Below, one piece after another: positions 9,885 through 61,827 of a DNA stretch of 64,000 bases. Position numbers and translations under genes: made by a program. The notes under the pieces were generated by a model. The model worked only from the letters and a program-made list of their open reading frames with translations, ran no database searches and had not been told where the DNA came from. Source of the DNA: Paratinospora sagittata (lineage: Eukaryota > Streptophyta > Magnoliopsida > Ranunculales > Menispermaceae); the NCBI GenBank assembly GCA_035771175.1, contig CM069611.1, positions 15,034,366 to 15,098,365 on the forward strand, written 5' to 3'. The number at the start of each line of letters is the position of its first letter. Within the stretch, counting starts at the first letter, position 1.

Positions 9885-10435
9885 AAGACGCTAATGTTTT
9901 AGTAGCGCCCTCTTGGACTTGATGAGTCAGCACGTTGATAAAATGTTCGGACGCTCAAGGTTGAATTGATCTGATTAATAAGGATGCTCACTTGGTAATA
10001 GCGACCTTTCCTTTATCAACCTTTGAGAATGTCAAGGCGTTGACTTAGTTTCAGCTCGCTAAAAGATCTTTTTGTCTATAAGTGATTTCTATCTTTAAGA
10101 ACGCTGATAAGTTATAAGTTGAATAATTTATCAAGACGCTTCTTGTGTAGGAGCGCCCTCATCTTTAGAATCAACTTAAATAACTTTCAGGACGCTTACC
10201 GTCTGTCAGTGCACTTAACATTATTTTTAAACTATTTTTTATAGTTCAGAATGCTTACTCTTGAGTAGCGCTCTCGTGTGTCAAAAGTTTTAAAACAAAG
10301 CAAAACGCTCATTGCAAAATAGCGCCCTCATGAATTAAGTCATTTTATTGTCAAAGCAAGTCAGGGCGCTTACTATCAGTAGCGCCCTCACTTCATTGTT
10401 CAGTAGGACGTTGATATTCTATGAGCGCCCTCAAA
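9885..10435. repeat. Array of inverted half-sites GGACGCT ... AGCGCCC
   Basis: About ten units of the form CAGGACGCT, 8-25 variable bases, AGCGCCCTC, spaced 40-70 bp apart. The best single unit is 10364-10387, where GGGCGCT pairs perfectly with AGCGCCC plus three further pairs. The array lies upstream of the TATA box, so in U3. Equivalent arrays lie at 37318-37868, 52634-53177, 58525-59072 and, broken and antisense, at 14845-15011 plus 27765-27835. Confidence 0.75.
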
Positions 10436-10709: not shown

Positions 10710-10718
10710 TATAAATAC
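10710..10718 (+). promoter_or_regulatory. Copia-1 5' LTR TATA box
   Basis: TATAAATAC follows a C-rich stretch and lies about 370 bp before the hairpin array. The same box is at 38158-38166 in the 3' LTR and, on the minus strand, at 61561-61569 in the related half LTR. Position and conservation fit an RNA polymerase II promoter that starts the element transcript. Confidence 0.65.
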
Positions 10719-11082
10719 AAACACTTAACAATTTGTTAAGACCACTAAAAATTCTCTAAGCTAAAACACTTTTTGAAAGTTAGTCAAATTTTCATATGAT
10801 TATAGTTTTAAAGTGTTTATTTGAATCATTACTTATTCAAATGATTTTCACACTAAGCTAAGATTCTATCTTTATCTGAAAATTGATTTGAAAGTTTGAA
10901 CTATTTTCACTCAAATTATTCAACACTGTTTTTACTTATATCATTCTTGTTAAAAGAGAAATTTGAGAGATAGTTCTTAGGATACAGTTGTTCTCAATTT
11001 CATATCTTGTATACTGTATCAAGGTTGTAACAGTAGTTAGATAAACTACTGAGTTGATATTCTATATTCAACAAGGTCAGGT

Positions 11083-11239
11083 TTTCTCACACCCGTAAGC
11101 TGAGAAACGGTTCTCACACCCGTAAGTTGAGAAAGCATAGGTTGGTCTCAGGCCTGTAAGCTGAGTAGTGTAACAGTTGTTCTCAAACCCTCAAGTTGAG
11201 AAAAGGTGTAACGGTTTGATTCTCACCCATAAGAGAATC
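11083..11239 (+). repeat. Hairpin array with CCCGTAAG-like loops (Copia-1 5' LTR)
   Basis: Five consecutive hairpins. Stems are TTTCTCA/TGAGAAA (11083-11107), TTCTCA/TGAGAA (11111-11133), CTCA/TGAG (near 11156), TTCTCA/TGAGAA (near 11180) and GATTCTC/GAGAATC (11218-11238). Loops are about 8-11 bases with cores CCCGTAAG, CCTGTAAG, CCCTCAAG or CCCATAA. They lie downstream of the TATA box and before the primer site, so they would be in the RNA leader. Confidence 0.75.
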
Positions 11240-11426
11240 CCTTAGTGACAAGGTTAAAATCTTAACTGAGGAGGTTAGGTAGTTGACGTAGGCAAGTAGC
11301 CGAACCACTATAAATCGACTGTGCATATTTGTTTACTTTCTGCACTTTAATTTTTGCCATTGTAATTATTTTTAAATTGTCTAAGTGTCCAATTCACCGC
11401 TGTCTTGGACATATTTGGCCCAACAA

Positions 11427-11439
11427 TTGGTATCAGAGC
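11427..11439 (+). other. Copia-1 primer-binding site
   Basis: TTGGTATCAGAGC, complementary to the 3' end of initiator tRNA-Met as in most plant copia elements, one base after the LTR end CCAACA. Confidence 0.85.
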
Positions 11440-13738: not shown

Positions 13739-15011
13739 TGTTGGCCCAGATGTGTCCAAGAGGGGGGGTGTGAATTGCACACTCAGCAAATTTTAACCGT
13801 TCTTTTAATTGTGCGGAATAATGAAAAAAGATTAAACAAAGTATATCAATGAGATACAGTAAATGTAAATGGGACAATGCAAGCAAGATTTATAGTGGTT
13901 GGGTTGCGCCTACATCCACTACCTAACCTCCTCAGTTAGGATTTGTTCAAACTCCACTATGGACCTTCTTATGGGTGAAGATCAAACCGGAACACTTTCT
14001 CAACTTATGGGTATGAGAACTACCGTTTCTCAGCTCACGGGTGTGAGAAGACCGTTTCTCTACTTACAGGTGAGAGAGAACCTATTCTCAACTTATTGGT
14101 GTGAGAAGACTGCTTACAACTTTGAGAAACATTTGCTCTAACTCAATGACTTACCCGTTACTACAATCTGATTACAGAATGAGATATGATTCCCTTTACT
14201 CAAAATCAAAGTGATATTTACGACGTTTTGGATTGAACCTTCTGTTGCCACAGATTCAGCGAAATATGTATGATGAAGTTTATGCTGAAAACAGGTTCAA
14301 ATAGCTTTTGTCTTCATTAATGGGTTTTTGAAATAATGAAGAAGAAGATCGATCAACCCAGAAGACTTGAAGTTTTTCTTTCAAAATATCGTAAGATCAA
14401 GCACAAGTGACAGAAGAATAACTTTCAAAAAGTGTTTTGGCACAAACGAAAACTGTCAATACGTTTTGAATGAATATCAGTTTCGCATTTCATTAGTTAG
14501 TTTTTCTACTCTGAGGCAGCACATATATATACTACTAACAGAGGGGCAATGGACTTGGTAATTTTGGCGCTCTAAGTTATTTCAAATATAACGTTAAAAT
14601 TCTTTCCAGAAATGGATCGATTCAACTTAATACATATTACGGTGATAACACCTGAATCATCTGATCCTTTCATGAAAGAGGAATGTTCTGACAAAGTTTT
14701 AGAACGTTTTAAAAAGTTCTGAAAAGTTGTTGTACGATTCTGAAAAGTTTTGAAAAGTATTCGTACGTTTCTGAAAAAGGTTAATAGGAATAGTAGTAAT
14801 GTCAGAACAGCAAAAATATATTTTCTGTCGTTTTGTTCTTTTGAGGGCACTCATAGAACATCAGCATCCTACTGAACAATGAAGTGAAGGTGCTACTAAA
14901 CAGTCAGTGCCCTGACTTGTTTTGACAATTAAACGACTTAAAACATGAAGACGCTACCTTGCAGTAAGCATCCTGCTTTGTTTTAAAAACACAAAACATA
15001 TGAGGGCGCTA
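13739..15011 (-). repeat. Antisense copia LTR inside Copia-1, first piece
   Basis: The plus strand starts TGTTGGCCCAGATGTG, the reverse of a SIRE-type LTR end. It contains the hairpin array in antisense (13990-14115) and a run of AGTTCTGAAAAG-type repeats (14700-14780) as in the Copia-2 LTR, then the start of the GGACGCT array. At about 15011 it is cut by the chromovirus pair and resumes near 27741. Some 300 bp of LTR are missing between the two pieces. No internal sequence follows, so it is a solo LTR or fragment. Flanks (AGTTT and AAAAT) do not match. Confidence 0.75.
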
Positions 15012-36967: not shown

Positions 36968-38893
36968 TGTTATCTCAATGAACCCCATTGTATGAATATT
37001 TTGATGATTCCAAATATCTTCAGTTTGTGTATCTAATGATCTTGTCAAGTGTTTTAGATTTATCAAGAATTAAGATCAAGGAATTGTGCTCACAAGCCTA
37101 TTGAACATCACAAAGTAAAGTTCCGAGTCTATCTGTACTTAGAATGTAAAGTCTATCGATCAACTTACTCTCAACAAGATTGTATCATTTGCATATTTTG
37201 ATCGTAACATTTTAATCGTACCCTTTGATTTCTAAAGTATTTGATTTGATTAAAAGAAACAATGATGTTTTATTGAGTTTTAATTGAGAAATCAAAAACC
37301 GTTTTTATAAAGTCTTTCAGGACGCTAATGTTTTAGCAGCGCCCTCCTGGACTTGATGAGTCAGGATGCTGATAAAATGTTAGGACGCTCAAGGTTAAAT
37401 TGATTTGATTAATAAGGACGCTCACTTGGTAATAACGACCTTTCCTTTATCAACCTTTGAGAATGTCAGGAAGCTGACTTAGTTTCAGCTCGCTAAAAGA
37501 TCTTTTCGTCTTTAAGTGATTTCTATCTTTAAGGACGCTGATAAGTTATAAGTTGAATAAATTATCAGGACGCTACTTATGTTGGAGCGCCCTCATCTTT
37601 AGAATCAACTTAAATAACTTTCAGGACGCTTACCGTCTGTCAGCGCACTTAACATTATTTTAAAACTATTTTTAATAGTTCAGGATGCTTACTCTTGAGT
37701 AGCACCCTCGTGTGTCAAAAGTTTTAAACAAAGCAGGACGCTCACTGCAAAGTAGTGCCCTCATGAGTTAAGTCATTTTATTGTCAAAGCAAGTCAGGGC
37801 GCTTACTCTTCAGTAGCGCCCTCACTTCATTGTTTAGTAGGATGCTGATATTCTATGAGTGCCCTCAAAGGAACAAAACGATAGAAATGATATTTTTGTT
37901 GTCCTGACGTGTACGTCCTTTTAACCAACTTTTCAGAATAACTTTTCGTACAAAATCAATTTTTTGTATTTGTAAGAGATATTTTCTGATTCACGAACCA
38001 CGTCTTCTAAAACTTTCCTTATTCGTGTATAAGGAGAAAATCAGAATATTCATGAAATGTGCAGTTGTTATTTTCGTGATATATTCTAGTTATTGTGAGT
38101 AAACTTTCATATTTGAAATTCAAATTCAAATGAACAACAACTTCATCTCTACAAGTCTATAAATACAGGCACTTAACAATTTGTTAAGACCACCGATTAT
38201 TCTTTGAGCTAAAATACATTTTGAAAGTTAGTCGAATTTTCATATGATTCAAAAAGCTTAAGTTATTCTAGTTTCAAAGGATTTATTTGAATCATTACTT
38301 ATTCAAATGATTTACACACTAAGCTAAGATTCTATCTTTATCTGAAAATCGATTTGAAAGTTTGAACTATTCTCACTCAAATTATTCAGCACTATTTTTA
38401 CTTATATCATTCTTGTTGAAAGAGAAATTTGAGAGATAGTTCATAGGATACAGTTGTTCTCAATTTCATATCTTGTATGTTGTATCAAGGTTGTAACAAT
38501 AGTTAGATAAACTATTGAGTTGATATTTTATATTCAACAAGGTCAGGTCGTCTCACACCCATAAGTTGAGAAACAGTAGTTCTCATACCCGTAAGTTGAG
38601 AAAGCATAGGTTGGTCTCACGCCTGCAAGCTGAGCAGTGTAACGGTTGTTCACACCCACAAGTTGAGAAAAGGTGTAACGGTTTGATTCTCACTCGTAAG
38701 AGAATCCCTTAGTGACATGGTTAAAATCCTAACTGAGGAGGTTAGGTAATAGACTTAGGCAAGTAACCCAACCACTATAAATCTACTGTGCATATTTGTT
38801 TACTTTCTGCACTTTAATTTTTTCCATAGTAATTATTTTTAAATTCTCTAAGTGTCCAATTCACCCCCCCTATTGGACATATTCGGGCCAACA
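36968..38893 (+). repeat. Copia-1 3' LTR
   Basis: 1926 bp, same ends as the 5' LTR. Holds the GGACGCT array (37318-37868), TATAAATAC (38158-38166) and the hairpin array (38545-38706). The ACACT TSD follows. Confidence 0.9.
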
Positions 38894-41379
38894 ACACTCA
38901 CATCAAGACCTACACTCTGGTGGCTAGGTCTTCAAGTTATTACAACTTCATTTCCTTTATCAATAGAACCTGAAAGGGGAAAAATAAAGTGAGCCAACTA
39001 TGCCCAGTGAATAGTGTTCAAATATGTCATCAATTATACACCAATATAAATACCATATATGCATGAATGATGCTCATGAGTTTATAAACACATAATACAT
39101 AGTACAACATGCATCCATATATCATCATGCAAGTTTAAAAAACCACGCACATGTTCACCTTCCATTCCAATTCTCTGTTACGTTGACCTACAAGTTGATC
39201 CTCCTATTTTGGGGCATAGCTTTCACATCCATCTCACTCATCCTCATCGTTAAGATGTTAGTGATCATCCCTAGTGAAGTGTTATAACACTTGTGGCCTT
39301 TGGGGTATATCATCATGTCCATCTGAAATCCCTCCTATGGAAGGTCTTGCCATACCTCTAGAGTATTTAGCTTGGCTCTATCGTCTGTAAGGGGTTCTCT
39401 TTAAGAAAAGCAGTCCCAACCCATGCAGTGTTATTAAGCCCAAGCCTTCTAGATAGTCTAAACATACCAACCCATAGGGTTTTACACACATGCACACATG
39501 CAAATTCATAATAAAACATTTCCATGATTTCCAACATAAACATATAATTGAATATGATGACATAAAAGATAAACATAAAGAACATCTACTCACAACCAAG
39601 CCAAACGAGAATAACTACCACACACGCGGTCCAATCACACAAATCCAATCAAGATCCTGTAAACCATATCTATTCACATAATATCAATTATCATGATCAT
39701 TTCCCATATATAGACACTAGGCCCATACACCATCACATTCCAACATAAATCTTAATTCTCATATCACATGCCTCCAATGTCTAATTTCCAACTATAATAT
39801 ACTGAATCAATCATAATTAGGAATATTCAACTATTAGGCATCAACTATGCCTAACTATAATGCTAATTCAACATCTAAGCCTAGGCCAAAGCATAGCCAA
39901 TTATAGGCCAGCTTCAATGTCAATCAACCCAATGCATATCAATTGGATTGTAACCCATCATTCACAATGATTATCATTATTCAAACCATAAACATCAATT
40001 GGGTCTTATAATGAGCTCAAGCCAACAAGTAGGCCTAACCCATAACATGGTTAGCATAGTTTAATTCATGGTGTAATTCAACTCCATTTATTCCCAATTA
40101 GGCACAAATCATCTCAATTGCATACTTCAAGGTCAATTCCATTAAAAGCCCCAAAATTTGAGAACTTCCCATGTTAGGTCATATTGTCAATTTGAACTAG
40201 GTCATCATACACCACCATGTCTAACCTCAAATTGGCATCAAGAATCAGCCCAAAATACTCATTTAGTCAACATAGTTGACATACATACAACCCTAGGTCC
40301 AAGTTCTAGGTTAGGGAATTACAAGGTAACCCCATCAATTTCTTCATGAAAGTTAGGAAAAATGCTACCAAAGTGCTCCACATTACTCTAGATTTCCAAA
40401 TCAAGAACGTGTATTTTGGATTCAAAACCCTAACTTCAAACCTCACCAAAATCATGACGGAAAGCTTGTCATAATGTGTTTTGGCATAGATCAAGGTTAA
40501 AGACGTCAAAACCACCATTATTAAGTCATTTCAAGTTCTAGAAATCAAAACCCTAGGTGGTGAACATCCAAATTTGAAACCCATGGTGAGATTTACACCA
40601 TTAGAAAGCTTGAAACTAACACTAGGAACATTTTCATGGAAGAAAATGGAAGGAACCATCACCTTGGAGCAAAATCTTCAAAGCCTTAGCTCCATCTTCT
40701 CTTCTTCCTCTTCTTTTTCTTTTCTTCTTCTTTTCTCAAACATGAATGGGGAGAGAGAATGAGAGAATGGGCTGTTTTAATGGGATATGTTTTAAATGCT
40801 AGTGATATCATGCACCATGAGTAGAATACTTAGATAACACCATTTCTACACCACCCATTCAAATATTATCACATATATTAATTTGTGCAATAAATGAGGG
40901 CATTTATTGTGGTCTTCTCAATAAGTCCCAAGACATTACCATAACTTGCTCAACAAGTTACATGGTTGTGGCTTCTCCAACAAGCCACCCTTAATATCAT
41001 TAATAACGTTAATGATAATAATGCCCACAATGATAATACTAGTAATAATAATCCTTTCCACAAGCACCGTACACAAACAAACCATCAACATTGCTTAAAA
41101 TATTCTAAAACACTGAACTCAACTATTTCCATCCACATGATCTTAGGCCAGTTCCTTGGGTTCAACCAAACTCGATTATTCTCATGGTATGACTATAGGC
41201 TAATTTCTCGGTTCATTTATAACTTTCATGAAATTCATGGTACACATATATCAAACAATACACAACAATCATGCATCATAACACAACATACCTAAATTTT
41301 CATCTATTACGGGCACGTAGAGTTGGGCACTCATAAAAACAAAACACGGGCTACGAGGAGGAAATTTTGGGGCGTCACA
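38894..41379 (-). repeat. Element A Tekay-like LTR, antisense, right of Copia-1
   Basis: The right edge reads GGGGCGTCACA, reverse of TGTGACGCCCC, a Tekay-type LTR start. Its middle aligns with the sense LTR 50030-52247, for example the block TTTAATGGGATATGTTTTAAATGC at 40775-40798. It would be the 5' LTR of the antisense element whose gag remains at 7309-7911. No ORF of note; an AT-rich (CT)n-like stretch lies at 40695-40740. Confidence 0.75.
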
Positions 41380-41779
41380 AAGTGGGTCATCCTTAGCCCG
41401 ATAAAAGGATTTGAGGTTCTTCCTTATCCCGCAAAAGGAAGTAGAAGATTCATCCTTAGCACGTAAAAGGATAAATTTATCTTGAACCTGTAAAAAGGCA
41501 TTTGTAACGGTTTGATTCACACCCAGTAAGTGAATCTGAGATAGTGGAATCCTAGAGAAGGTTTCTCTAGGTGTCGAGTAGGAAAAGGTTTTTCGAACCA
41601 CGTAAAAACCTTGTGTCTTTGCATTTAAATTTTTGTATTTATCTCTTGCATAAGACATATTTGAACAAATGCCTTAACCAATTCAAGGATAACGTAAGAA
41701 AATATAAAATTGACTAAATTGGTCAAGACACCCAATTCACTCCCCACCCCCTCCCCGCCCCCCTCTTAGGTGACTGACA
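41380..41779 (+). repeat. Copia-3 LTR end fragment with hairpin array
   Basis: Last ~400 bp of a further copia LTR family, ending GTGACTGACA just before a primer site. Four hairpins: ATCCTT/AAGGAT (41389-41410), CTTCCTT/AAGGAAG (41419-41441), ATCCTT/AAGGAT (41452-41472) and GATTCA/TGAATC (41514-41536). Loops share the core CCCG or CACGTAA. Its left part was lost where element A inserted. Confidence 0.75.
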
Positions 41780-41780
41780 A

Positions 41781-41792
41781 TTGGTATCAGAG
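41781..41792 (+). other. Copia-3 primer-binding site
   Basis: TTGGTATCAGAG, tRNA-Met type, one base after the LTR end. Confidence 0.8.
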
Positions 41793-42124
41793 ATATAAGG
41801 CTTAACATCCTTGAGCAAAAGATCAAAATGCTCAATACCTTAGGATTTGACTTAGGTGATAACCTACTATCTGTACTTACGCTTAATGATTATAATTTCA
41901 TATCTTGGAGAATTAGGGTGAGAGCTTTCATAAAGGCTCAATCATTTGATATGTGGGGATATAGTTAGAAATGGACCATTTGTACCCACTAGGATCATAA
42001 ATGGAGTTAAAGTCCCTAAATTAAAGAAGAAATGAGATAGGAAAGAAAAACATTTAGTTACACTTGAGACTCTAGCTAGAGATACATTACTTAGATGTCT
42101 TTCCCAAAATGACATTAATAGAGT
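41793..42124 (+). pseudogene. Copia-3 gag N-terminus
   Basis: Frame-broken copia gag start: LTLNDYNFISWRIRVRAFI is readable near 41880-41935, then stops and shifts occur. It is cut at 42124 by the antisense solo LTR and continues after 46813; the AGAGT repeat on both sides shows the two parts were joined. More of it lies at 46814-47213 and 48661-48930. Confidence 0.65.
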
Positions 42125-45100
42125 TGTTGGCCTAGATTATAGTCCAAGAGGAGGGTTGAATTGGACTTTAGCAGATTTTCCTAAACACCTTACTTAACAT
42201 AATTAGCAAAGATGAAAGTAATATAAAGTGCAAGAAAGAAATCAAAGGACACAGCGATTTAGAGTGGTTTGGATTATTTAAAGCCTACCTCCACTACTTA
42301 ACCTCACCGGTTAAGATTTCCTAAACTCCATTAAACTTGATTCAACTTACGGGTGTGAATCAAACCGATACAACTTGATCCAACTTATGGGTGTGGATCC
42401 TACCTAACTTTGATTCAACTTGCGGGTGTGAATCGAACCGTTACAAACACCATCCTCCGGTTAGGAGACTTCCCACTTGAATAACAAGCCAAGTCAAATA
42501 CAATAGTGTAATAAATGATAGAGAGTTTTGTTACCAAACAACTCTCAAAGATTTAGTACAAATAAAATGAATGGCTCCTTAGATGAATCAGCCAAAATAA
42601 TGAAGTATGAAGTGCAGGCTAGTAATAGAGGTTCCTAGTTGTTTTCTTGACTTGGAAGTGATGTAGATGAAGCACACAAGTCAAAGAACTCCGAAACACT
42701 TGAAATCTCTAAAGAGGATGTTCTCACTAAGTGAGAATGAAAGAACTTAGAGATTTATTTTGAAACACAATAGAGAAAACTTGTTGAAGAGATTTAAAAA
42801 ATACTTTAGCGCAAGAACACTTTCTCTCAAATCAAAATGAACTTAGAATGCTTGCAAACGTTTGAGAGATGTGGAGAACAATAGAGTGCACACACTTCAT
42901 AAATTTTGCAAAAGTTGCTCTCAATGAGCAAAGGAGTTTATTTATAGAAAATTGAAAATCAAAAAAGTAAGAACCATGGTTCTGTACACAGAAACCCGTT
43001 TCTGTTCAAAATGCACTAAAAACAGCTCTCTATTTTTATCATGAAAACGTGTTTCTTTTGAGAGAAGCATGTTTCATTGTGAAATTTCAGAATTGCCCAA
43101 AAAGCAAGAAACGTGTTTCTCTCAGAGGAAATGTGTTTTTGTGTGCATTTCTTGATAGCATTATTCTGGGAATTTTTAAGAAGCGTGTTTCTTAAACAGG
43201 AACGCGTTTTTGCTCGTGTCACGACCCACTATACATGACGTCATGACCAGCACGAAAACCTCCGAGTATACCCTCTGTCGGTACACCCGCCGTCCCGTCA
43301 ACCTAAAACACATATACGAATCTCCTAAAATCAAATACAGTACAATCCTAAAAACATCCATCTAACATGATCATAAATGAAATAAAATATTACATCTCCA
43401 AGTTATCAAATATAAAATTTCAAAGTTTACAAAATACTACAAACCCAACACATCCCAACTATGTGTTAATTATACATATACTAGGTGTTATCATGTACAT
43501 AATTATCAAATTACAAAATCAAATGTACAACACCTACATGAAACAAAAACAAGGAACGTTATGCAGTCAAGCCTTCCCTTTCCTTTTTCTATCAGATCCT
43601 GAAAGAAGAAGGTGAGGTGTGAGCTACAGCCCGCTCAGTGAATGTCATTTACAAGTGGCATATACGTGCATTTAATAAAAACATGATAAGATCATAAATC
43701 ATTGAAATACTATGATGACGAAATAGATTACATACATGCTAACATAATGCATCAAGTCATACATAAGACGATGAATAACATTTGTAGTCATACTCATGCA
43801 ATCCTAACACCTCCTGAGTACGAGGGTTTAAGGCTGATGCGCTACACACAGTACCTGAACACACGCATAATACTCATATCCTAATAGGATTTTTGGGCTT
43901 GTGTAGCACGTCGGATTAGCCTAAACTAACATACCCATACACATGCCATAAAACCCTCTACCAGGTACACAACTGGGATCGCCGCTAGACTTACGAGAAT
44001 TCCCAAAAAGAGAAAACTCCAACTAAGAGCCTCAACCCAAATTGTCATCCCAATGAATTATGCTCAAATGTATTTCATGGAATATTAAACACATGCATAC
44101 CATTATGCATAAGAATTTAAAACATTTCTATACTACAATGCCACATATAAATAATCCAAAAGTAAAAGAACATTCACTCTTGATTGGCTAAGTCTAGCCA
44201 ATCCAATCGCCAAAACTCTCCAATTGACTAAACGAGTTCAAGATCAATCACAAGACCTGAAAATAACATGGTTCACACAACTGAAAATCAGTCATAAAGT
44301 GTATCAAAACCCCATGTTCAAACCCAATCTAAAGTCAATTAGATTCTAAATTGGTTACCCCCTTGAGCCAATTTTCATATTGCCCAATTTGATTATTTAG
44401 ACTCAAATAAACCAAGATTGATCTAAATTGAATGTAATAGGGTGATCCCATGATCCAACCACTAATGTACATGACATTCAATTCTAATTAGGGTCAATTA
44501 GACTATACATCAAGTCAATTTCATCAATTGACGAAGTCTTGGTCAAAATCTCCAATTAGGCCAATATAAAACATAAGGTCAAAATGAACTAAGTCATATC
44601 AATTTAACATAGGTTCTAACATTGTAAACCAATGATTCTATTCAATTTGGGTCCAATGAAACAATCCCCAAGTCAATTTCATAAATTGACTTGATTTGGG
44701 TGAAAAGTCCCAATTTGGGAAAAATTCCCAAATTACATGCAAAATTGCCAAAGTACATGAAAAATGCCAAATACTTAGCCTAGATCAAAATTAGTCAACC
44801 CTAGGGTGTCAAGTATGAGAACCCACTGAATTCTATCATCAACAACCCTAATCATGCCCCGAAAGACCTACATTGCATAATTTTTCAGATTTTCAATCAA
44901 GAGCATCAAAAGCCCCAAATCTGAAAATTTTCATACATAGGCAATATAGCCAATTTTACACTAGGCCACCATACATAGCCACGAAATTTACTGAACTTGC
45001 ACCTTGGGATCATCCACCATGGCTACTAGGTCAACATAGTTGACGTGCAAAGCTTAACTCTAACCCTAAGTCAATGATCCAAGTGTAGGCCATTTGAACT

Positions 45101-52247: not shown

Positions 52248-53954
52248 TGTTGAACCAATTATCCTCATGTCCCTCACGAGAATATGTCTCTAATATGAAA
52301 GATATTTTGATGATTACAAACCACATTTTGTTTATGATATTATTGCATACATAGCATATCTAATCTTACTTGAAGGTTTCAAAAGAATCAATGATGCATG
52401 GCAGATATATTAAAGATCTACTTGAAGATCATGATCATTTGAAGATGTTTGGTAGTATGATTAGATTATTATAGGTTGTAGAACCTTCTATGCCATTTGA
52501 TTCAGCAATATGCATGACTGCACATTTTAATCGAATTGATTTTCAATCCTTTGCATATTTGATTTAATCCAAAAATACCATGCCTTATCGAGTTTTAATC
52601 GAGAAATCAAAAATTGTTTTTATAGAGTCTTTCAGGACGCTAATGTTTTGGCAGCGCTCTCCTGGACTTGATGAGTCAAGGTGCTAATACAATATTAGGA
52701 CGTTCAAGGTTGATTTGAACTGATTCATTAGGACGCTAACTCGTAAGAAGCGGCCTTCCTTTTTGTCAACCTTTGAAAGTGTCACGACGCTGACTTAGTA
52801 TCAACTCGCTGGAAGTTCTCTTAGTTTTTAATTGATTTCTATCTTTAAGGACACTAATAGTTACAAGTTGAATAAACTATCCGAATGCTACTTGTATGGG
52901 AGCACCCTCATCTATAGAATTACCTTAATAACTTTCACGATGCTTATTGTCATTCAGCGCACTTAATCGTGTTTTAAAAATATTTTTCAAATTTCAGGAT
53001 ACTTACTTGTGCCCTTGTGCGTATACGTGTTTTAAAAATAAGCAGGACGCTAACTGTCGAAGTAGCGCTCTCATGATTTGAGTCGTTTAATCGTCAAAGT
53101 AAGTCAGGACACTTACGATTAAGTAATGCCCTCCCTTCACTATTCAGCAGGACGCTTATGCTTCATGAGCGCCCTCAATAAACAAAACGACATACTTGAT
53201 ATTAAGCTTCAGGACGCTAATTCAACAATGCTACTGTTCTGACATTGACACTATTTCTATTAGCTTTTTTAGAACCGTACAGAAACTTTTCAGAACGTTT
53301 CAGAACCGTACTAAAACTTTTCAAAACTTTTTGAACGTTCTAATACTCTGTCAGAACATTCCTTTTTCGTGAATGATCAGATGATTCAGGTGCTATCGTC
53401 GTAATATGCACAAAGTTGAATCAATCCATTTGGGAAAGAATGTAGATGTTGTATTTGAGATAACATAGAGTGCCAAAATTCATCAAGTCCATTGCGCCTC
53501 TGTTATTTCTATATATACGTGCTGCCTTAGTGCAGAAAAACTACGAATCAATATGAATACTAATATTCATTCAAAAAACACATTAAACAGTTTTCACTTG
53601 TGCAAAATAACTTTTTGAAAGTTAGTCGTCTTTCATTCCTACTTGAACATGCAATCATTTTGAAGGAAAAACATCTAGTCTTATGGATTGATTGATCTTC
53701 ATCTTCATATTTTTTAAAATACATTGAAGAAGACAAAAGCTCTTTGAACTTGTTTTTCAGCCAAACTTCATCATATATATTTGTTCAATCTATGGTAATA
53801 GAAGGTTCAATCCAAAGCTTTGTAAGTATCACTTTGATTCTGAGTAAAGGGAATCATATCTCATCTTGTATTCAGTTTGTAGTGACTGGTTAGTCACTGG
53901 GCAAGAGCAAGTGTTGCTCAAAGTTGCAACGGTCCTCTCACACCAGCAAGTTGA
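52248..53954 (+). repeat. Copia-2 5' LTR, 3' end missing
   Basis: Matches 58137-59840. It stops inside the first hairpin unit (CTCTCACACC near 53935) and joins gag sequence. Contains the GGACGCT array (52634-53177), AACCGTAC/AACTTTT repeats (53272-53335) and TATATATAC (53510-53518). Confidence 0.85.
53510..53518 (+). promoter_or_regulatory. Copia-2 LTR TATA box
   Basis: TATATATAC, conserved at 59398-59406 in the 3' LTR, in the position matching TATAAATAC of Copia-1. Confidence 0.55.
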
Positions 53955-54540
53955 CTATGTTATCTAGAAAGTTCAACAAGTTACTTAAGAGAAAGAGTAA
54001 GAACAGCTCTTACTCAAGGTTTTACAAAGAAAAGAAACTCTAGTCTAAACTTGTAGAGTTAATATGTTACGGCTGTGACAAACCAGGTCATGTAAAGAGT
54101 GAATGTCCCATTAAGTATAAGAAGAACACCAGCTTGTATAGAAAATACAAGAAAGTTCTCAAAGCTACATGGGATGATTATAGCTCAAGCGAAGATGAAG
54201 TGGATTCAGATCACACTGCTGCATTATGTTTAATGGCAAGCACAGAGGTAAGATCTGAACCCATTGACGAACTTAATGAGCTCTATACTCATATTCAGGA
54301 GCTTAAGACAAAACTTAGTAAAGAGACCAGAAAGAATGAAAAGCTCAAGCATAGTCTTGAAGAAGTTATTGAGGAAATAGAATTCCAATAAGAAGAGCTA
54401 GACGGACATTCTCTAGATAATGAACAACTTAAGAAAGTTGTTAGGAAACTGATAAATGAAAATGAAACCCTTAGAAAAGAAAAGGAAGACCTGAACTGGA
54501 TTGTGATTAAATTCACAAATAGTCAAAAGTTATTTGACAT
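53955..54540 (+). pseudogene. Copia-2 gag C-terminus with zinc knuckle
   Basis: After the LTR join, Lys/Ser-rich gag sequence leads to a CCHC zinc knuckle (CYGCDKPGHVKSEC at 54068-54109). An acidic segment (WDDYSSSEDEVDSD) and a coiled coil (ELYTHIQELKTKLSKETRK) follow to 54391, with a stop, then more coiled coil to about 54540. The zinc knuckle would bind element RNA. The capsid part is deleted. Confidence 0.8.
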
Positions 54541-58136: not shown

Positions 58137-60187
58137 TGTTGAACCAATTATCCTCATGTCCCTCACGAGAATATGTCTCTAATATGAAAGATATTTTGAT
58201 GATTACAAACCACATTTTGTTTATGATATTATTGCATACATAGCATATCTAATCTTACTTGAAGGTTTCAAAAGAATCAATGATGCATGGCGAACGTATT
58301 AAAGATCTACTTGAAGACCATGATCATTTGAAGATGTTCGATAGTATGATTAGATTATGATAGGTTGTAGGACCTTCTATGCCATTTGATTCAACAATAT
58401 GCATGACTGCACATTTTAATCGAATTGATTTTCAATCATTTGCATATTTGATTTAATTCGAAAATATAATGCCTTATCTAGCTTTAATCGAGAAATCAAA
58501 AATCATTTTTATAAAGTTTTTTAGGATGCTAATGTTTTAGCAGTGCTCTCCTCGACTTTATGAGTCAAGGCGCTGATAAAATATTAGGACGTTCAAGGTT
58601 GACTTGAACTGATTCATTAGGATGCTTACTTGTAAGAAGCGGTCTTCCTTTTTGTCAACCTTTGAAAGTGTCAGAACGCTGACTTAGTGTCAGCTCATTG
58701 GAAGTTCTCTTAGTTTTTAATTGATTTCTATCTTTAAGGATGTTGATAGTTACAAGTTGAATAAACTATCAGGATGCTACTTGTATGGGAGCGCCCTCAT
58801 CTTTAGAATCAACTTAATAACTTTCACGACGCTTACTGTCATTCAGCGCACTTAATCGTGTTTTAAAAATAGTTTTCAAATTTCAACACGCTTACTTGTG
58901 AGTAGTGCCCTTGTGCGTATATGTGTTTTAAAAACAAAGCAGGACGCTAACTGTCGAAGTAGCGCCCTCATGATTTGAGTCGTTTAATTGTCAAAGTAAG
59001 TCAGGACGCTTACGATTTAGTAGCGCCCTCAATTCACTGTTCAGCAGAACGCTTATGCTTCATGAGCACCCTCAAGGAACAAAATGACAAAGATGATATT
59101 AAGTGTCAGGACGCTAATATAACAATGCTACTATTCTGTCACTGACACTATTTCTATTAGCTTTTTCAGAACCGTACAAAAACTTTTTAGAACGTTTTAG
59201 AACCGTACAAAAACTTTTTGAACGTTCTAATACTCTGTCAGAACATTCTTTTTTCATGAATGATCAGATGATTCAGGTGTTATTGTCGTAATATGCACAG
59301 AGCTAAATCGATCCATTTCAGGAAAGAATGTAGACGTTGTATTTGAGATAACCTTGAGTGCCAAAATTCATCAAGGCCATTGCGCCTCTATTATTTCTAT
59401 ATATACATGTTGCCTTAGTGTAAAAAAACTACGAATCAATACGAAAACTGATATTCATTCAAAAACGCATTAAACAGTTTTCACTTGTGCAAAATAACTT
59501 TTTGAAAATTAGTCGTCTTTCATTCGTGCTTGAACTTCCAATCATTTTAAAGGAAAAACATCAAGTCTTCTGAATTGATTGATCTTCATCTTCATCTTTT
59601 TCAAAATCCATTGAAGAAGACAAAAGCTCTTTGAACTTGTTTTTCAGCCAAACTTCATCATATATATTTGTTGAATTTGTGGTAACAGAAGGTTCAATCC
59701 AAAGCTTTGTAAGTATCACTTTGATTCTGAGTAAAGGGAATCATATCTCATCTTGTATTCAGTTTGCAGTGACTGGTTAGTCACTGGGCAAGAGCAAGTG
59801 TTGCTCAAAATTGTAACAGTCCTCTCTCACCTGGAAGTTGAGAAATTGTCGTCTCACTCCCGTAATTTGAGAAACGGTCTTCTCACACCTGTAAGATGAG
59901 AAACGGTAGTTCTCAAACCCATAAGTTGAGAAAGTGTACCGATTTATTCTTCACCCGTAAAAAGGTCCATAGTGGAGTTTGAACAAATTCTAACTGAGGA
60001 GGTTAGGTAGTGGACGTAGGCGAGGTCGAATCAGTATAAATCCTAATTGCATTGTCTCATTTACATTTACCGTATCTATTTGCTATGCTTTGTTTAATCT
60101 GCTTTCACTAATCCGCACATTACCAAGAAAGGTAAAAATTTGCTAAGTGTCCAATTCTCCCCCCTCTTGGACATATCTGGGCCAACA
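58137..60187 (+). repeat. Copia-2 3' LTR
   Basis: 2051 bp, TGTTGAACC...GCCAACA, full length. GGACGCT array 58525-59072, TATATATAC 59398-59406, hairpin array 59816-59950 with stems such as TTCTCA/TGAGAA and loops CCCATAAG, CCTGTAAG and CCCGTAAT. Confidence 0.9.
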
Positions 60188-60811: not shown

Positions 60812-61827
60812 ATTGGCCCAGATATGTCCAAGAGGGGGGTGAATTGGACACTTAGTCAATTTAAAAGTAAATGCAATGGCAAAATAAAAGTGCGGAAAAT
60901 AAATAAAACTTGCACAGTCGATTTATAGTGGTTCGGCTACTTGCCTAGGTTCACTACCTAACCTCCTCAGTTAGGGTTTTAAACGTTACCACTAAGGGAT
61001 TCTCTTACGGGTAAGAATCAAACCGTTACACCTTTTCTCAACTTCTAGGTGTGAGAATAACTGTTACACTGCTCAACTTGCAGGCTTGAGACCAACCTAT
61101 CTCAACTTCCGCGTGTGAAACAAACCTAAAGACTTGACTTACCGGTGCAAGACAACCTATCTCAACTTACGGGTGTGAAACAAACCTAAACTTGTTGAAT
61201 ACAAGAATATCAACTCAGTAGTTTATCTAACTACAGTTACAACCTTGATACAATATACAAGATATGAAATGAAGTACAACTGTATCCTATGAACTCTCTC
61301 AAATTTCCCTTTCAGCAAGAATAATATAAGTTAAAATAGTGCTGAAAAATTTGAGTGAAAACTGTTCAATCTTTCAAATGGATTTTCAGACAAAGATATA
61401 AAATTAGCTTACTATGAAAATCATTTGAATAAACTGAGTTTCAAAGGCAACGATTTGAAATAAAAATAGTTTAAACTTTTAAATCAAGTAAAAATTCGAC
61501 TAACTTTCAAAAGTGTTTTGGCTTAATGAATTTTCTGTCTTAGCAAATTGTTAAGTGCTAGTATTTATAGACTTGTAGAGATGAAGTTGTTGTTCATTTG
61601 AATTTGAATTTCAAAGATGAACGTTTACACTCAACAGCTAGAATGTATCACAAAAATGGCAATTGCACATTTTATGAACATTCTGATTCTCTTCAGATTC
61701 ACAAATAAGGAAAGTCCAAAAGGACGTGGTTCATGAATAAGAAGATATATCTGACAAATCCAAAAAGTTGATTTTTGTAAGAAAAGTTGTTCTAAAAAGC
61801 GGTTCAAAAAGATGTATGTGTCAGTTT
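60812..61827 (-). repeat. Half of a Copia-1-type LTR, antisense
   Basis: Begins TATTGGCCCAGATATG, one change from the expected TGTTGGCCC. Contains the hairpin array in antisense (60990-61190, with extra divergent units) and the minus-strand TATA box 61561-61569. Cut at 61827 by element F at the point matching about 10485 in Copia-1. Confidence 0.8.

What the first reader, a model, noticed from the sequence alone, without database searches (positions are those of the whole stretch)
41389..42434. Copia LTR leader hairpins whose stems covary around a constant CCCGTAAG-like loop
Neighbouring LTRs carry short hairpins with different stem sequences that remain paired: ATCCTT/AAGGAT, CTTCCTT/AAGGAAG, GATTCA/TGAATC (41389-41536), and TTGATTCA/TGAATCAA, GATCCA/TGGATC, GATTCA/TGAATC (42337-42434, read antisense). 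Loops keep a CCCG(T/C)AA-like core. Changes on both sides of the stem, some within one LTR (GATTCA to GATCCA with TGAATC to TGGATC), are what selection on RNA or cruciform structure would leave. They sit after the TATA box and before the primer site, so in the genomic RNA leader. Packaging, dimerisation, translation control or binding of a host protein are possible roles. I do not know of a described element of this form.
Basis: partly seen in the sequence, partly recalled or inferred. Interest (0 to 1): 0.78.

Follow-up and report, generated by a model that had tools for sequence, protein, structure and literature searches.

The report
Covarying hairpin array in retrotransposon leader
Several related plant jumping genes in this stretch of DNA carry, in the untranslated start of their RNA, a row of small hairpins whose stems change letters in matched pairs while the loop stays nearly the same, which suggests a selected RNA signal of unknown role that I found no description of.

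Summary
All six hairpins are at the stated coordinates. Similar arrays, mostly with other stems, sit at the matching place in six more Copia LTRs or LTR pieces of the window: 35 units in 8 LTRs. Loop consensus is ACCCGTAA; 18 different arm pairs occur; the innermost four base pairs form in 34, 35, 35 and 34 of 35 units. Covariation exceeded all 2,000 simulations on a tree. A hairpin just downstream covaries too. The sense strand downstream of the TATA box is purged of ATG (13 against 48 expected in five LTRs); the antisense strand and the region upstream of TATA are not, so the array lies in a 5' untranslated leader of about 700 nt.

Against a stable RNA element: folding energies are ordinary, the antisense strand has the lower energy in 6 of 7 arrays, and 14 of 34 units reach a pair probability of 0.5. 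All data come from one window; no plant genome could be searched.

Best reading: selected weak RNA hairpins whose constant loop is a repeated protein-binding site, perhaps for Gag or a host protein. The partner is inferred. It differs from known Sirevirus palindromes, which lie upstream of TATA.

The parts
41389..41410 (+). unit G1, ATCCTT/AAGGAT, loop AGCCCGATAA
41419..41441 (+). unit G2, CTTCCTT/AAGGAAG, loop ATCCCGCAA
41452..41472 (+). unit G3, ATCCTT/AAGGAT, loop AGCACGTAA
41475..41503 (+). unit G4, degenerate
41514..41536 (+). unit G5 (terminal unit), GATTCAC/GTGAATC, loop ACCCAGTAA
41551..41571 (+). post-array hairpin CCTAGAGAA/TTCTCTAGG
41783..41792 (+). primer-binding site region (GGTATCAGAG) at the end of LTR G
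42412..42434 (-). unit H1, GATTCA/TGAATC
42377..42399 (-). unit H2, GATCCA/TGGATC
42337..42363 (-). unit H3 (terminal unit), TTGATTCA/TGAATCAA, loop CACCCGTAAGT in sense
42297..42315 (-). post-array hairpin of LTR H, CTTAACC/GGTTAAG
42939..42946 (-). TATA box of LTR H (TATAAATA)
42128..42916 (-). ATG-poor leader of LTR H, 4 ATG
11083..11239 (+). array of LTR A, 5 units (TTCTCA/TGAGAA type, terminal GATTCTC/GAGAATC)
11260..11280 (+). post-array hairpin of LTR A (paired part 11261-11279)
10710..10717 (+). TATA box of LTR A; its primer site is at 11429
38547..38709 (+). array of LTR B, 5 units
53932..53960 (+). array remnant of LTR C, one unit
59819..59970 (+). array of LTR D, 5 units
13959..14110 (-). 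array of LTR E, 5 units
60995..61184 (-). array of LTR F, 6 units

Best explanation
In SIRE-like Copia elements of at least three lineages (A-F in two related subgroups, G, H) the 5' untranslated leader, between the TATA box and the end of the LTR and probably in U5, carries 3 to 6 tandem short RNA hairpins of about 6 base pairs, spaced 26-38 nt, each presenting the loop (C)ACCCGUAA(G), followed by one more covarying hairpin. Selection keeps the arms complementary and the loop nearly constant, but not the arm sequence. Shown here: the arrays, the covariation, the loop constancy, the place in an ATG-purged leader. Inferred: the hairpins act as RNA, and the loop is a repeated low-affinity site for one protein. 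The weak stems would let scanning ribosomes pass, while several copies give avidity. I think the element's own Gag (selecting genomic RNA for particles) the likeliest partner, about 0.35, and a host protein for export or translation next, about 0.25.
For: 35 units, 18 distinct arm pairs, pairs 1-4 formed in 34, 35, 35, 34 of 35. Tree-simulated null: paired cells 191 against mean 139, both-sided changes 1141 against 150, mutual information 3.76 against 0.56, each 0 of 2,000 simulations. 25 equal-length units: covariation score 0.300 against 0.141 in shuffles (0 of 500); slid registers at most 0.111. Distinct arm pairs only: 86 of 108 Watson-Crick pairs against 50.4, 0 of 20,000. Complementarity stops after pair 6 (pair 7: 7 of 35 against 13.9 expected). 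Post-array hairpin: 6 pairs in 7 LTRs all paired, 3 pairs with both-sided changes, two U-G, no A-C. ATG purge on the sense strand only: leader 13 against 47.8, CAT 63 against 59.7, upstream of TATA 49 against 45.5. G-U 9 cells, A-C 2 in pairs 1-5 and closing pair.
Against: Array folding energies are ordinary: sense z -1.54 to +0.51, antisense z -0.66 to -3.37, and antisense has the lower energy in 6 of 7 arrays and the lower z in 4 of 7. In context 14 of 34 sense and 11 of 34 antisense units have a pair with probability 0.5 or more. With pair 6 added the G-U to A-C count is 11 to 6. Taken singly, the number paired at pairs 2-6 is not exceptional (reached in 111 to 431 of 2,000 simulations), and the plain count of pair types is not significant (122 of 2,000; 63 of 500). 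In the 25-unit set pairs 2 and 3 vary in one unit each. Neighbouring units can also pair with each other. One window only; copies have decayed since insertion. The alignment was made by hand and the register of G1-G4 was chosen with pairing in view. No protein partner, no RNA data.
Confidence: 0.5

Rival explanations
1. DNA-level element: the dyads are binding sites or cruciforms in an enhancer within the leader, as proposed for the Drosophila copia leader.
For: Antisense folds at least as well as sense. Palindromic repeats upstream of TATA are known in Sireviruses and similar ones are present here. Bousios et al. mention an activator in the 5'UTR of copia (its reference seen in the reference list).
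Against: A protein that reads a DNA palindrome would keep the arms, yet the arms vary and the loop is near-constant. G-U exceeds A-C in pairs 1-5, though less so with pair 6. Cruciforms with 6-bp stems and 8-11 nt loops are unlikely to extrude (general knowledge).
Confidence: 0.17
2. No function: arms are kept complementary by templated correction of imperfect palindromes during reverse transcription or replication.
For: It would also give both-sided changes; inverted repeats with short loops are the substrate (general knowledge; not tested by a call).
Against: It does not explain a near-constant loop, a constant place, or the sharp end of pairing after six pairs with less than chance pairing at pair 7. 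U-G pairs at pair 4 in B4, D5, E5, F1, F3 and G4 are left uncorrected.
Confidence: 0.12
3. Silencing target: hairpins feed small-RNA production, as proposed for maize Sirevirus palindromes.
For: Copia LTR structures in maize go with small RNAs (PMC10760457, passages). The loop CpG appears as CG in 14, TG in 6, CA in 7 and other in 5 of 32 eight-base loops, which fits decay of methylated CpG.
Against: An element should be selected to lose such structure, not to keep it (inference). Whole arrays of 156-201 nt fold at -33 to -51 kcal/mol, so 110-nt windows probably miss the -40 threshold of that study (not computed).
Confidence: 0.08
4. Artefact of tandem duplication, hand alignment and relatedness.
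For: Few lineages in one window; A-F are related to each other; the tree was built from 30 columns.
Against: Six fully complementary different arm pairs against 0.50 expected, maximum 5 in 20,000 shuffles; a search by loop only gives hairpins in the same arrays.
Confidence: 0.06

Closest known systems
Sirevirus LTR repeated motifs (Bousios et al. 2010, PMC2829016; abstract, two of three parts of the Results, the section on their possible role, and passages seen)
   Same: Multi-copy short dyads in LTRs of SIRE-type Copia elements, arms differing between families
   Different: Those lie upstream of TATA, nearly all have a CGG-CCG core, and they form CpG islands; the arrays here lie downstream of TATA in CpG-poor leader (observed/expected 0.42-0.64) and have a near-constant loop with variable arms
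Maize Sirevirus palindromes CACCGGACNNNGTCCGGTG (Bousios 2016; paper not held; seen as cited in PMC10760457, passages)
   Same: Clustered LTR hairpins
   Different: One consensus palindrome with given arms, said to define the cis-regulatory region, discussed in relation to small RNAs
Retroviral leader packaging hairpins (search listing) and the dimerisation and packaging signals mentioned for BARE2 (PMC3735527, passages)
   Same: Signals in the 5' leader of retroelement RNA
   Different: No tandem array with exchanged stems was seen described there; the consensus loop here is not self-complementary; Gag binding unknown
Plant pararetrovirus structured leader recruiting TREX (PMC12786077, passages)
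   Same: A long leader of a plant retroelement (about 482-608 nt in that text; about 680-790 nt here)
   Different: That leader is described as highly structured (upstream ORFs: abstract of PMC5902531 in listing, and recall); this one is ATG-poor with small hairpins

Membership tests
Sirevirus (SIRE-type Ty1/copia) | LTR/internal junction CA/ATTGG/TATCAGAGC | tested here: met
   LTR A at 11429 exact; LTR G at 41783 has TATCAGAGA, one base off. These two of 8 have a primer site by exact search
Sirevirus (SIRE-type Ty1/copia) | C-rich integrase signal near the LTR 3' end | tested here: met
   read by eye in A, B, D, E, G, H; weak in A; not reached for C and F
Sirevirus (SIRE-type Ty1/copia) | conserved cTATAwAwA box mid-LTR | tested here: met
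   A, B, C, D, F, H (A has T in place of the first c); E not examined; G truncated
Sirevirus (SIRE-type Ty1/copia) | RT lineage by phylogeny; multiple PPTs | not tested
   RT of the C/D element matches RVT_2; no tree with reference lineages
Sirevirus repeated motifs (RM) | placed upstream of TATA | tested here: not met
   arrays begin 371-509 nt downstream of TATA in A, B, D, F, H
Sirevirus repeated motifs (RM) | CGG-CCG core, CpG island | tested here: not met
   arms lack CGG/CCG; leader CpG ratio 0.42-0.64 in A, B, D, F, H
Any Rfam family | score above gathering threshold | tested here: not met
   0 matches in the window; 0 at E up to 1 in 41300-43000
Retroviral packaging/dimerisation signal | self-complementary loop (dimerisation) | tested here: not met
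   consensus CACCCGTAAG has no palindromic 4-mer (read from sequence)
Retroviral packaging/dimerisation signal | Gag binding and need for packaging | not testable with these tools
   needs an experiment

The most novel reading that the evidence does not exclude
A new class of cis-acting RNA in plant LTR retrotransposons: a tandem array of stem-swapping, loop-constant hairpins in an ATG-purged leader that serves as a multivalent Gag (or host protein) recognition signal, evolving its stems freely while conserving the loop.
Probability: 0.35. Interest if true: 0.78.

Novelty: new variant of a known kind. Interest (0 to 1): 0.6.

Why it matters
How plant LTR retrotransposons pick their own RNA out of the cell is little known. 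A short, repeated, covarying hairpin with one loop is a concrete candidate that can be tested with Gag pull-down, structure probing and loop or stem mutants in a leader reporter. The ATG purge also gives a sequence-only way to map the transcribed leader of such LTRs.

Tried and rejected
Spacer-loop pseudoknot: the spacer ACGG could pair with loop CCGU; tested against swapped and scrambled loops, upstream 239 against means 251 and 263, downstream 254 against 252 and 249; rejected. Initiator-tRNA anticodon-loop mimicry (CCCAUAA, recalled): the CA variants are better explained by CpG decay, 14 CG, 6 TG, 7 CA and 5 other of 32 loops. Third helix AGTGG/CCACT after the post-array hairpin: by eye it has mismatches in A, B, D and F (sequences); not counted. 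Loop kissing: no self-complementary loop.

Outside data: viral contigs, 6 scans: 14 exact junction matches (about the number expected by chance by my own estimate; not examined further), otherwise no relative or match. Genome contigs, 2 scans: 0 and 16 RT relatives in bacterial assemblies; a scan of these 16 for the loop showed no array, only one lone loop-like site with a 6-pair stem in L023 and one without a stem in L029; they may not reach an LTR. Papers searched by sequence words (40 of 68 listed) and by topic (20 of 432; 20 of 39; 7 of 7; 20 of 537; 1 of 1; 3 of 3): no description of such an array in the titles and abstract starts listed; the unlisted ones were not seen. The 2016 maize palindrome paper is not held.

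Rows dropped: none of the 35 units before counting. The units were collected by hand from the eight arrays. The 25-unit test took the 25 of 35 units of equal length. Pair probabilities left out unit C1 (34 of 35). Folding and the post-array count cover 7 of 8 LTRs (C lacks the region). The ATG count uses 5 of 8 LTRs; partial leaders are given apart. One search had the pairs mis-registered by my error; one search is the right one.

Full report
The six reported hairpins are present at the stated places with perfect arms. The window is a nest of LTR retrotransposons (Pfam); named relatives of the reverse transcriptase of one Copia element are mostly from plants (120 of 7,988 hits listed). The first array belongs to a plus-strand Copia LTR (here G) cut off near 41380 and followed by a primer-binding site at 41783 and what I read as a gag remnant (not confirmed by a family search). 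The second belongs to a minus-strand LTR (H) that, by my reading, sits inside that gag region and has a TATA box at 42939-42946.

The same kind of hairpin occurs in six other LTRs or LTR pieces of the window: A (11083-11239, plus), B (38547-38709, plus), C (one unit, 53932-53960, plus), D (59819-59970, plus), E (13959-14110, minus) and F (60995-61184, minus). I counted 35 units in 8 LTRs. A, B and F are close to each other, as are C and D, with E nearest D. The two subgroups also share stretches upstream of TATA at 80% or more (184-nt family D1, and arms I21), so they are related. G and H stand apart. There are at least three lineages, not eight independent samples. Where it can be seen the order is constant: TATA box, 340-480 nt of leader, array, post-array hairpin, a conserved AACCAC/AAATC stretch, C-rich LTR end.

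Search by loop alone: ACCCGTAA with at most one mismatch occurs 37 times on the two strands; 21 lie in these arrays and 16 elsewhere. A stem of five or more pairs is found at 18 of 21 and 0 of 16; the background rate is 2.6%. The array borders were drawn after seeing the hairpins, so the fairer figure is 18 of 37 against about 1 expected.

Covariation. The units have 18 distinct arm pairs (15 left arms); six are fully complementary and different, from TTCTCA/TGAGAA to ATCCTT/AAGGAT, against 0.50 expected and at most 5 in 20,000 shuffles. Pairs 1 to 6 form in 34, 35, 35, 34, 27 and 26 of 35 units, pairs 7 to 9 in 7, 12 and 17, all below the chance figures of 13.9, 16.8 and 18.5. Simulation of independent columns on a FastTree tree of the units never reached the observed pairing, both-sided change or mutual information in 2,000 runs. 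The plain count of pair types was reached in 122 of 2,000 and is not significant. Taken singly, both-sided change at each of pairs 1-6 was reached in 1 to 40 of 2,000 runs, but the number paired at pairs 2-6 in 111 to 431. For 25 equal-length units the covariation score was 0.300; no shuffle of 500 and no slid register (at most 0.111) reached it; the count of pair types was reached by 63 of 500. The post-array hairpin, aligned by hand, pairs in all six positions in the seven LTRs that hold it (C lacks it), with both-sided changes at three positions.

Place. In five LTRs with a TATA box (A, B, D, F, H) the sense strand from 30 nt after the TATA start to about the LTR end (F only to 60850, D to 60170) has 13 ATG (2, 4, 2, 1, 4) against 47.8 expected from dinucleotides; CAT, its reverse complement, is normal (63 against 59.7), and ATG upstream of TATA is normal (49 against 45.5). 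Partial leaders: G 1 against 6.5, E 2 against 5.8, but C 5 against 7.6, which is hardly a purge. The purge holds before the array (8 against 28.2), within it (1 against 6.0) and after it (4 against 11.8). LTRs A, B and F are related, so these are not independent counts. A published model estimates the R region of Sire LTRs at 10 bp (PMC3601003, passages); if so here, the array is in U5 and occurs in the RNA only at its 5' end.

RNA or DNA. Half-changed pairs in sense orientation, in pairs 1-5 and the closing pair, are G-U in 9 cells and A-C in 2; counting related units once I judge about 7 to 2. With pair 6 the cells are 11 to 6. That leans to sense RNA, weakly. Against it, energies are ordinary for the base composition: sense z -1.54 to +0.51, antisense z -0.66 to -3.37, antisense lower in energy in 6 of 7 arrays. 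Of 34 units, 14 in sense and 11 in antisense have a pair with probability 0.5 or more. The last unit is well predicted in A, B, E and G (0.97-1.00) and fair in H (0.67); it is poor in F (0.40) and absent in D (0.00), where the unit before it scores higher. The post-array hairpin gives 0.14 to 1.00, with 4 of 7 above 0.5.

Mechanism. Near-constant loop, variable arms, fixed stem length, several copies and weak stems in a scanned leader fit repeated protein-binding hairpins better than a rigid fold. Gag is my first candidate because genomic RNA must be picked out and the site is in the leader upstream of the primer site; this step is inference. Templated repair of palindromes, a DNA enhancer and a silencing target are rivals with the weights given.

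Known relatives. Sirevirus repeated motifs lie upstream of TATA, nearly all with a CGG-CCG core, and form CpG islands (PMC2829016). These LTRs also carry palindromic repeats upstream of TATA (AGGGCGCT/AGCGCCCT in A and B; GACGCT and AGCGC words in A-D and AAAC words in H), so both kinds coexist. No Rfam family matches. I saw no description of a leader array of this form in the listings of searches, several of which list only part of their hits; subscription papers are mostly not held.

Limits. One genome window; copies decayed after insertion; units collected and aligned by hand, register of G1-G4 set with pairing in view; plant genomes not searchable, and the search of the window's own genome did not complete.

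Noticed in passing
10740-11422, 38188-38895, 59427-60170, 60850-61540, 42128-42916: Sense-strand ATG purge of long Copia leaders, 13 against 47.8 expected, absent on the other strand and upstream of TATA.
   Followed up: yes
11260-11280, 38727-38747, 13921-13941, 59988-60008, 60956-60976, 41550-41572, 42296-42316: Second covarying hairpin just after the array in seven LTRs.
   Followed up: yes
10363-10388, 37796-37822, 52600-53507, 58480-59396: Palindromic GC-rich repeats (AGGGCGCT/AGCGCCCT and relatives) upstream of TATA, resembling the known Sirevirus kind but with another core.
   Followed up: partly
53932-53990: The 5' LTR of the element at about 52.2-60.2 kb loses its array after one unit, which looks like a deletion into the internal region (read).
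   Followed up: no
L015-L030: Copia reverse transcriptase genes in bacterial genome assemblies, some probably eukaryotic contamination.
   Followed up: no
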